Assembly: GCA_025929585.1 (NCBI GenBank)
Contig: JAICPY010000003.1
Coordinates: 34,217 to 98,216 of the forward strand
DNA length: 64,000 nt
Origin: Steroidobacter sp.
Lineage (GTDB): Bacteria > Pseudomonadota > Gammaproteobacteria > Steroidobacterales > Steroidobacteraceae
Direction of reading: 5' to 3'
Shown: positions 39,306 through 41,047 of the stretch, one piece after another
Position numbering within the stretch: position 1 is the stretch's first letter
Layout: each line of letters begins with the position of its first letter
Made by a program: the position numbers and the translations under genes
The notes under the pieces: generated by a model
What the model saw: only the letters and a program-made list of their open reading frames with translations
The model's database searches: none
Told to the model about the DNA's origin: nothing

Positions 39306-39599
39306 CTACGCGCTGATGACACGGGTCATCGGGCTATGGCCGCGGACGTCTTCGTCTGTGTCCGGCTCGTCCTCTTGTTCGGGTTCATCCTCGTCGTCCG
39401 GCGTACGCACCAAGCAGCAAACATTCACTCTCGCACCGAGCAGTTCCTCTAGTTCGCGTTGAGTGCCTGCCCGTAGTACTTCGGCGAGCATCGGATCCAG
39501 GCCCGCCAAACTCAATTGACCTTGAATGTCATCTAGCGTGCTATTGCGAAAACCTGCGTCCTGGCCCATTCGCTCTAGGAAGTCGATCACGTTCGGCAT
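39306..39599 (-). CDS. Putative split-borosin precursor protein (97 aa)
   Basis: MPNVIDFLERMGQDAGF...LAEVLRAGTQRELEELLGARVNVCCLVRTPDDEDEPEQEDEP...; helical N-terminus with FLxxMGQDA like bacterial split-borosin precursors; AAAGGAGAG upstream of ATG 39599. Confidence 0.72.
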   Translation of the reverse strand: MPNVIDFLERMGQDAGFRNSTLDDIQGQLSLAGLDPMLAEVLRAGTQRELEELLGARVNVCCLVRTPDDEDEPEQEDEPDTDEDVRGHSPMTRVISA

Positions 39600-39668
39600 A
39601 CTTCTCTCCTTTGGAATGATCGTTCGAAGAAACCGTTCGGCGAAAATCTCATGGGAACGCATCCGCGT

Positions 39669-40238
39669 TCACGCAAGCGTGATTTGATTCTGCGGCTGAG
39701 TAACTTGGAGTAGGTACCCGCTGATTTGCGTTTCCCAATGCTCGCGAAAAGCAGATCGGACACGCATCTGAGTATGTGTCCCCGCACACTCATCACTGCA
39801 GGCTCCCAGCCCAGCTTTCGCGAATAGTCGCTCCGCGGCGAGATTCCGAGCGTCATATTGAACCCAAATCTCGTCTATTGGAAATACCTGAAACGATGCT
39901 TGAAACAACCCCTGTACGGTTTCAAGCCCATAGCCTTTCAGACGGCGGTCGGACCTCAACATCAAACCTGCTTCCGCCCGCGTGTGCTCGATCCGCAGGC
40001 TGCAGATGCCGATGGGGCGGCTGATTCTCGATTCGACGACTGTCCAGAAGAATCCTTTTCGCGGCTGGACCTCGCCGGATCGAAGAGCACGGCCGAACTG
40101 CTCGATCGCTTGCTCCGGGCGAAGAGCCGGGCCAATGAACCTCATCGTACCGCTGTCAGTGAATAACTCGCAAAAGATCGATTGATCTTGGGCTTGCAGC
40201 TCGCGGATGAGTAACTGATCGGTGCGGACTGTGAACAC
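39669..40238 (-). CDS. GNAT family N-acetyltransferase (probable GTG start at 40238)
   Basis: LLIRELQAQDQSIFCELFTDSGTMRFIGP, GLMLRSDRRLKGYGLETVQGLFQASFQ, VQYDARNLAAERLFAKAGL; ORF-track start 40595 lies antisense inside the methyltransferase reading frame region. Confidence 0.78.
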   Translation of the reverse strand: MFTVRTDQLLIRELQAQDQSIFCELFTDSGTMRFIGPALRPEQAIEQFGRALRSGEVQPRKGFFWTVVESRISRPIGICSLRIEHTRAEAGLMLRSDRRLKGYGLETVQGLFQASFQVFPIDEIWVQYDARNLAAERLFAKAGLGACSDECAGTHTQMRVRSAFREHWETQISGYLLQVTQPQNQITLA

Positions 40239-40255
40239 AGGTTGGAAATCGCGGT

Positions 40256-41047
40256 TCAGCTCGCCGCGCCATCGAGTGCCGCTAGTCGGCGGCGAACGAT
40301 CTCGTCGGGAAGTAAGTCCGCCGCCGGCGGCACGACCAAAGTGGCGTGCAGGTCGACTTCCGCCGCCGGCAAGTCCGCCAGCGAGATGCGTTTGATGGAG
40401 GGTTTCTGAGTCGGCAAGGTCGCTGCTTTGTAAATGAACACCTTGTGATCTAACGGGTATTCTCTTGCCAACACATCGACGAGTACCTGCCGATAAGCCG
40501 GACCGGTTGAGAACCGAGCGAAGCTTCGATCGCCGGCGACGCCGATCTGCCAGAGGATCAAGTAAGCGGAGGTGTCGATCGAGCGTCGGTACCACATGAT
40601 CTGACTAGCTTCGTAGTGCTGGCAGCCGTACTTACCAGGATCGATTCCGAGATCCGCATATAGGCAATCTTCGGCCGAGATGCCCGGCTCCATATGCGCC
40701 GGGAAGCCTTCCCCACGAGCGATTTGGATTGCCTTGTGGGGAGGCCAGGCGAAGACTCCCGGATGTCCGTAGAAGGCCCCGCAAACTTTTTTTCCGGCGC
40801 GGACCTCCGTGAGCATGACATCGACCATTTCGCGATACGTGGCGAGCCGCGATTTGCCCTCCCGGTACAATGACTGAAAGCTGCGTACGTCCTTGTTCAT
40901 TTTAGCCAGCCAAAGCTCGATGATTCCGTTCGAGACGGCAGCGAAGACCACATCGGATTGCTCGATGTAACTGCGCGCTATCGGTGTGAGATGTGAGCCG
41001 AGCGTCATTCCGACGCCCACGCACACCAAGCTCCCTGAAGCCTTCAT
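40256..41047 (-). CDS. Borosin-type peptide alpha-N-methyltransferase (tetrapyrrole-methylase fold)
   Basis: GSLVCVGVGMTLGSHLTPIARSYIEQSDVVF, RLATYREMVDVMLTEVRAGKKVCGAFYGHPGVFA, MEPGISAEDCLYADLGIDPGKYGCQHYEASQIMW, YPLDHKVFIYKA: SonM/OphMA-like signatures. Confidence 0.85.
   Translation of the reverse strand: MKASGSLVCVGVGMTLGSHLTPIARSYIEQSDVVFAAVSNGIIELWLAKMNKDVRSFQSLYREGKSRLATYREMVDVMLTEVRAGKKVCGAFYGHPGVFAWPPHKAIQIARGEGFPAHMEPGISAEDCLYADLGIDPGKYGCQHYEASQIMWYRRSIDTSAYLILWQIGVAGDRSFARFSTGPAYRQVLVDVLAREYPLDHKVFIYKAATLPTQKPSIKRISLADLPAAEVDLHATLVVPPAADLLPDEIVRRRLAALDGAAS

What the first reader, a model, noticed from the sequence alone, without database searches (positions are those of the whole stretch)
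39306..41047. Putative split-borosin (backbone alpha-N-methylated RiPP) locus: methyltransferase, GNAT, precursor
Seen: three co-oriented genes in order methyltransferase (40256-41047), GNAT (39669-40238) and a 97-aa small protein (39306-39599), followed by a GGDEF protein on the same strand. The 263-aa methyltransferase has a tetrapyrrole-methylase fold but the signatures I associate with borosin alpha-N-methyltransferases (GSLVCVGVG..., RSYIE.(S/A)D.VF, R..TY..MV, YGHPGVFA, MEPGISAE.CL.ADLGIDPG, YPLDH.V.IY.A), as in Shewanella SonM and the catalytic half of fungal OphMA. The small protein has a FLERMGQDA start resembling split-borosin precursors. Established: borosin methyltransferases methylate backbone amides of a cognate precursor. 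Inference: this window encodes a split borosin; a borosin with a GNAT and a diguanylate cyclase neighbour would be worth characterising.
Basis: partly seen in the sequence, partly recalled or inferred. Interest (0 to 1): 0.9.

Follow-up and report, generated by a model that had tools for sequence, protein, structure and literature searches.

The report
Split borosin operon with paired sensor-cyclase

Summary
In detail: methyltransferase (40256-41047), GNAT (39669-40238), 97-aa precursor (39306-39599) and a TPR-GGDEF protein (37511-39322) lie in order on the minus strand. The methyltransferase is a borosin alpha-N-methyltransferase: about 50% identical to SonM, with every catalytic residue kept. 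The small protein has a SonA-like borosin-binding domain, then a short hydrophobic/Cys core and an acidic tail. It is a new member of a known kind (type IV-like split borosin).

The less obvious result is the diguanylate cyclase. Its signal-peptide/TPR/TM sensor sits beside borosin methyltransferases in Steroidobacter, Xanthomonadales, Kangiella, Thalassotalea, Pleionea and Ferrimonas, and in SonM-orthologue loci of the Shewanella-containing family, including one 99% identical to SonM. The sensor tree tracks the methyltransferase tree. In two loci the same sensor is joined to a histidine kinase instead of GGDEF. Two orphan methyltransferases lacking precursor and cyclase have lost catalytic residues. 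The GNAT marks one precursor subtype and is fused to the methyltransferase in two relatives.

Best reading: a modified-peptide/receptor module feeding c-di-GMP. The biosynthesis part is near certain; the receptor step is inferred. A GGDEF-linked borosin architecture has already been drawn in the literature.

The parts
40256..41047 (-). split-borosin alpha-N-methyltransferase, 263 aa
   Evidence: about 50% identity to SonM over the domain, PDB 7LTC E 1.4e-73; catalytic Y58/R67/Y71/Y93/F99/W166/Q167 of SonM all conserved
39669..40238 (-). GNAT acetyltransferase (Acetyltransf_3), 189 aa, likely tailoring enzyme
   Evidence: PF13302 E 2.7e-18; present in 25/27 loci of this precursor subtype and 0/15 of others; fused to the methyltransferase in L060 and L061
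39604..39612 (-). Shine-Dalgarno-like AAAGGAGAG before the precursor ATG
   Evidence: sequence shows directly
39306..39599 (-). borosin precursor, 97 aa
   Evidence: conserved family next to the methyltransferase; homologous to SonA
39438..39599 (-). borosin-binding domain (residues 1-54, five predicted helices)
   Evidence: AlphaFold2 model, pLDDT about 84 over residues 1-54; Foldseek best matches are SonA chains, rmsd 2.3 A over about 51 residues for several
39399..39431 (-). predicted core (residues 57-67, RVNVCCLVRTP); L63 aligns with the methylated L63 of SonA
   Evidence: alignment in register from G55; SonA methylation at L63 and I65 (PMC8429565); methylation here is inference
39309..39398 (-). 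acidic C-terminal tail (residues 68-97), disordered
   Evidence: low pLDDT; an acidic tail recurs in most precursors of this subtype
37511..39322 (-). TPR-sensor diguanylate cyclase, 603 aa (GTG start 39322 or ATG 39286)
   Evidence: PF00990 E 1.7e-39; intact GGEEF with RxxD I-site; conserved partner of the methyltransferase
39212..39274 (-). N-terminal signal peptide-like hydrophobic segment (about residues 17-37)
   Evidence: sequence; hydropathy of homologues; predicted helix 18-37
38345..39199 (-). TPR superhelix sensor (residues 42-326), probably periplasmic; Cys194 and Cys224 invariant in 34/34 homologues
   Evidence: AlphaFold2 pLDDT mostly above 90; conservation
38096..38152 (-). transmembrane segment (residues 391-409)
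   Evidence: hydropathy 2.03, inside the long helix 330-421
37592..38056 (-). cytoplasmic GGDEF domain (residues 423-577)
   Evidence: Pfam; motif RPQDLFGRFGGEEF

Best explanation
The locus is a split-borosin operon. The methyltransferase binds the five-helix leader of the 97-aa precursor and N-methylates backbone amides in the short core just after it (residues about 59-66, NVCCLVRT; L63 lines up with a methylated site of SonA). The GNAT probably acylates the precursor or released peptide. After proteolysis and export by enzymes not encoded here, the peptide is sensed by the periplasmic TPR domain of the adjacent diguanylate cyclase, which changes c-di-GMP output. Shown by sequence and structure: enzyme family, intact catalytic residues, SonA-like leader, sensor/TM/GGDEF architecture, conserved pairing. 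Inferred: methylation at these residues, the GNAT step, release, export and ligand-receptor recognition. Stated separately, the borosin biosynthesis part is about 0.95 likely and the receptor step about 0.5.
For: Methyltransferase. Precursor. Pairing: the sensor part was found at E<=1e-5 in only 11 of 100 relatives and 3 of 387 class genomes. In every case except G005 it lies next to a borosin methyltransferase or its precursor (Fisher p 6e-10 and 4e-5; genomes are not independent). In nine further genomes the best sensor match is the methyltransferase-linked one. The pairing is also present at 19 of 20 loci of the Shewanella-containing family, including sonM-sonA-cyclase in a genome with SonM at 99% identity. 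Sensor and methyltransferase trees agree (Mantel rho 0.88, permutation maximum 0.42). In L048 and L049 the sensor carries a hybrid histidine kinase output instead of GGDEF, so it is the sensor that follows the borosin. Orphan methyltransferases in G007 and G013, without precursor or cyclase, have lost Y58/Y71 and Y58/R67/Y71. GNAT-methyltransferase fusions occur in L060 and L061.
Against: No methylation, peptide or binding was measured. The precursor has no signal peptide and no transporter or peptidase is encoded beside it; the pepsin-like peptidase found next to related operons was not detected in this genus (neither with a positive control). G005 keeps the cyclase without the methyltransferase, GNAT or precursor. 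L087 has two precursors but no cyclase. Some partners in the Shewanella-containing family have degenerate GGDEF motifs. Conserved neighbourhood could mean shared regulation rather than recognition.
Confidence: 0.6

Rival explanations
1. It is a split borosin, but the cyclase is only co-transcribed: c-di-GMP controls when the peptide is made or used, or both genes belong to a shared lifestyle regulon, and the peptide itself acts elsewhere (for example as an antimicrobial or metal-related metabolite).
For: Diguanylate cyclases are common (29 GGDEF matches in this genome) and often sit with the operons they regulate; G005 keeps the cyclase alone; no export or processing gene is present.
Against: The conserved part is the sensor, not the GGDEF output: the same sensor is joined to histidine kinases in L048 and L049, and some partners have degenerate GGDEF. 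Close sensor relatives were hardly seen away from borosin genes at the sensitivity used.
Confidence: 0.28
2. The modified precursor is not released; the leader or whole modified protein acts inside the cell on the cytoplasmic part of the cyclase or on another target.
For: No signal peptide on the precursor and no transporter in the operon; the acidic tails are long and variable, unlike a simple secreted peptide.
Against: The conserved partner region is the sensor with a signal peptide, a TM segment after it and an invariant Cys pair, which fits the periplasm. Pepsin-like peptidases are encoded beside related operons, which implies release.
Confidence: 0.1
3. The methyltransferase is a cobalamin, siroheme or other small-molecule tetrapyrrole methylase and the small protein is unrelated.
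For: It carries the Pfam TP_methylase domain.
Against: SonM and OphMA are by far the closest solved relatives; tetrapyrrole equivalog models score far below their cut-offs; borosin-specific residues are conserved; the precursor has a SonA-like leader.
Confidence: 0.01

Closest known systems
Shewanella oneidensis SonM/SonA type IV split borosin (PMC8429565; PDB 7LTC)
   Same: Separate 263-aa methyltransferase and small precursor with five-helix leader; same catalytic residues; core begins at the same register; SonM-orthologue loci in the Shewanella-containing family also have a TPR-GGDEF gene right after the precursor.
   Different: Core is Cys-containing (NVCCLVRTP) and followed by an acidic tail, whereas SonA ends after about 10 core residues; a GNAT lies between methyltransferase and precursor here and none was found at the SonA-type loci.
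Second, GNAT-containing borosin operons of Shewanella relatives, Lysobacter and Thalassotalea with a pepsin-like peptidase (from memory: shewasin A acting on a borosin precursor, Lee et al. 2024, ACS Chem Biol 19:1116; paper not readable here)
   Same: Same precursor subtype (D/N-hydrophobic-C core, PAED-like motif, acidic tail), same GNAT, same sensor cyclase.
   Different: No pepsin-like peptidase beside the window's operon or detected in 14 genomes of its genus (no positive control).
Fused fungal borosins (OphMA)
   Same: Homologous methyltransferase domain (E about 1e-50).
   Different: Here enzyme and substrate are separate proteins.
Peptide-binding TPR receptors of Gram-positive quorum sensing (RRNPP family; from general knowledge)
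   Same: A TPR superhelix next to the gene for a candidate peptide ligand.
   Different: Here the TPR domain is predicted periplasmic and joined through a TM helix to GGDEF; homology and binding were not tested.

Membership tests
Split borosin (type IV-like) | Separately encoded alpha-N-methyltransferase of the SonM/OphMA family | tested here: met
   PDB search E 1.4e-73 to SonM; 50% identity
Split borosin (type IV-like) | Catalytic residues Y58, R67, Y71 (and SAM-site Y93) | tested here: met
   all conserved in the window enzyme
Split borosin (type IV-like) | Discrete small precursor encoded nearby with a five-helix borosin-binding leader | tested here: met
   profile without SonA-like rows finds SonA; five predicted helices over residues 2-54; Foldseek best matches are SonA, though E values are above 0.1 because the domain is short
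Split borosin (type IV-like) | C-terminal core with hydrophobic residues | tested here: met
   NVCCLVRTP directly after the leader, conserved hydrophobic-C-hydrophobic pattern in 29 relatives
Split borosin (type IV-like) | Backbone amide N-methylation of the core | not testable with these tools
   needs co-expression and LC-MS/MS
Split borosin (type IV-like) | Physical complex of methyltransferase and precursor | not tested
   no complex prediction was available
Cobalamin/siroheme tetrapyrrole methylase | Passes an equivalog model cut-off | tested here: not met
   13-15 bits against cut-offs of 246-400 for precorrin/siroheme models
Active diguanylate cyclase | GG[DE]EF active-site motif | tested here: met
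   GGEEF with RxxD I-site RPQDLFGRFGGEEF
Peptide receptor of the borosin | Sensor domain co-occurs and co-evolves with the borosin genes | tested here: met
   with exceptions G005 and L087
Peptide receptor of the borosin | Sensor binds the modified peptide | not testable with these tools
   binding experiment needed
Shewasin-type borosin pathway | Pepsin-like aspartic peptidase in the operon | tested here: not met
   no peptidase gene among the window's neighbouring ORFs; no match in own genome or genus (neither with a positive control)

The most novel reading that the evidence does not exclude
Type IV-like split borosins are peptide signals: a ribosomal, backbone-N-methylated (and possibly acylated) peptide is recognised by a dedicated periplasmic TPR sensor whose output is usually c-di-GMP synthesis and sometimes a phosphorelay, making a modified-peptide/receptor pair in Gram-negative bacteria.
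Probability: 0.45. Interest if true: 0.88.

Novelty: new member of a known kind. Interest (0 to 1): 0.55.

Why it matters
From what could be read, bacterial split borosins are well described as enzymes, while the job of their peptides is not settled. A dedicated sensor that follows the borosin genes across many genera, keeps its own evolutionary history with them and swaps its output domain points to a signalling role that can be tested in a laboratory Shewanella strain, where the enzyme, precursor and structures are already in hand. If true, it would link backbone-N-methylated ribosomal peptides to c-di-GMP control.

Tried and rejected
Cobalamin/siroheme methylase: rejected. Single-sequence searches of the small protein against Pfam, NCBIfam and PDB gave nothing useful, so homology to SonA had to be shown with a profile; the first profile (A2) held SonA orthologues and was circular, so it was redone without them. 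Foldseek of the precursor gave SonA as best match but no E below 0.1, so it is support, not proof. Foldseek of the cyclase returned GGDEF structures in the rows shown and said nothing about the sensor; a PDB sequence search of the sensor gave one weak TPR match. The 422-aa neighbour in L015 was first taken for a pepsin-like peptidase and proved to be an M17 aminopeptidase, so it was removed from the profile. Papers defining split-borosin types (Imani 2022, Cho 2022) and the shewasin paper (Lee 2024) are not held, so what they say about GGDEF or GNAT neighbours could not be checked; the one paper holding both 'borosin' and 'GGDEF' has GGDEF in a figure legend.

Full report
WHAT IS THERE. On the minus strand, in order: methyltransferase 40256-41047, GNAT 39669-40238, 97-aa protein 39306-39599, TPR-GGDEF protein 37511-39322. 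Spacing is 17 nt, 69 nt, then a 17-nt overlap if the cyclase starts at GTG 39322, as in an operon.

METHYLTRANSFERASE. PDB search gives SonM at 1.4e-73 and the OphMA family at about 1e-50. Identity to SonM is 50%. SonM residues Y58, R67, Y71 (catalysis), Y93 and F99 (cofactor), W166 and Q167 (locks), described in PMC8429565, are all identical; E173 is Asp, as in most close relatives. Corrin and siroheme equivalog models are far below cut-off.

PRECURSOR. Alone, the 97-aa protein finds no known family. As a family it is clearly a borosin precursor: a profile of 29 relatives with all SonA-like sequences removed scores SonA at 23.7 bits, against 8.6 for the best of 5000 shuffled SonA sequences. 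AlphaFold2 predicts five helices over residues 2-54 and a disordered remainder, as in the SonA leader (five-helix bundle, residues 1-53). The best Foldseek matches are SonA chains (E values weak for so short a domain). G55 is in register with SonA G55, which puts L63 on the methylated L63 of SonA. This subtype has a conserved core, [D/N]-hydrophobic-hydrophobic-C-hydrophobic-hydrophobic, then a P/A-E/Q-D-D/E stretch and usually an acidic tail.

THE SENSOR CYCLASE IS PART OF THE SYSTEM. Loci were collected by methyltransferase similarity only. Methyltransferase, precursor and TPR-GGDEF recur together in Steroidobacter-group genomes, Frateuria, Arenimonas, Lysobacter, Luteimonas, Kangiella, Thalassotalea, Pleionea and Ferrimonas. 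Of 20 loci in the Shewanella-containing family, 19 have a sensor-bearing partner beside the methyltransferase, including the locus whose SonM is 99% identical to the crystallised one. The reverse search, with the sensor part alone, found close relatives in 11 of 100 relatives and 3 of 387 class genomes, always beside borosin genes except in G005. In nine of ten further genomes the best sensor match is the borosin-linked one; the tenth, Ferrimonas, is too diverged for the single-sequence query but is found by profile. Remote sensors elsewhere would be missed at this sensitivity. More distant methyltransferases (about 28-39% identical to the window's: L050, L052-L059, L063) have no such partner, so the link is to this branch, not to all borosins. 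Sensor and methyltransferase trees correlate (rho 0.88, best permutation 0.42); shared ancestry of genomes contributes to this.

WHY A RECEPTOR. The partner has a signal peptide, a TPR superhelix (residues 42-326), a long helix crossing one membrane segment and a GGDEF domain, with Cys194 and Cys224 invariant in 34 of 34, as for a periplasmic disulfide. In L048 and L049 the same sensor carries HisKA-HATPase-receiver domains. In several partners from the Shewanella-containing family the GGDEF motif is degenerate. What is kept is the sensor. Two congeners, G007 and G013, retain a methyltransferase but no precursor or cyclase nearby, and these are the ones that lost catalytic residues (Y58/Y71 and Y58/R67/Y71), as expected if catalysis matters only with the partners (G007 is a short contig of a 75%-complete genome). 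All this is circumstantial; binding has not been shown.

GNAT AND PEPTIDASE. The GNAT is found in 25 of 27 loci of the window's precursor subtype and 0 of 15 others (p 1.4e-9, not corrected for relatedness). It is fused to the methyltransferase in G002 and G008, so it very probably works on the same substrate. In Lysobacter, Thalassotalea and Shewanella-family loci of this subtype a pepsin-like peptidase lies just upstream. From memory, Lee et al. 2024 reported shewasin A, a pepsin-like enzyme, acting on a borosin precursor. No such gene was found in the window's genus (without a positive control), so release of the peptide here is open.

NOVELTY. The locus is a new member of a known kind. A published scheme of borosin types already labels a GGDEF domain (PMC11395268, Figure 1 legend), so the neighbour has been seen before; no readable paper was found that interprets it. 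The signalling reading is offered as a testable hypothesis.

Noticed in passing
L060:8134-9591 and L061:7553-8911: Methyltransferase-GNAT fusion proteins (485 and 452 aa) in two congeneric genomes, whose precursors carry long Lys-rich tails instead of acidic ones.
   Followed up: partly
L048:8883-12131 and L049:8774-11734: Borosin-linked TPR sensor joined to a hybrid histidine kinase instead of GGDEF.
   Followed up: partly
L065:2412-3335 and L047:7833-8747: Open but catalytically degenerate borosin methyltransferases without recognisable precursor or cyclase nearby.
   Followed up: partly
L066:2948-4813: Sensor cyclase kept beside the oxidoreductase genes that flank the window's operon, while methyltransferase, GNAT and precursor are gone.
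   Followed up: yes
L077:6964-7874, L078:6963-7583, L087:6819-7565: Two or three tandem precursor copies; L087 has no sensor cyclase.
   Followed up: no
L007:6995-7294 (Frateuria): Precursor whose core region is replaced by LDPPQISQFPGH, without the Cys pattern, in a locus lacking the GNAT.
   Followed up: no
L071, L072, L074, L080, L083, L084: Partner proteins with degenerate GGDEF motifs, possibly inactive cyclases or c-di-GMP receptors.
   Followed up: no
L069:7354-9145: Sensor and GGDEF parts fall in two overlapping reading frames, a possible frameshift.
   Followed up: no
window 45649-48649: 191-aa small protein, YfiR-like by eye, followed by an 817-aa protein that reads by eye as a HAMP/GAF sensor histidine kinase with receiver domain; another possible periplasmic-sensor signalling pair near the operon.
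   Followed up: no
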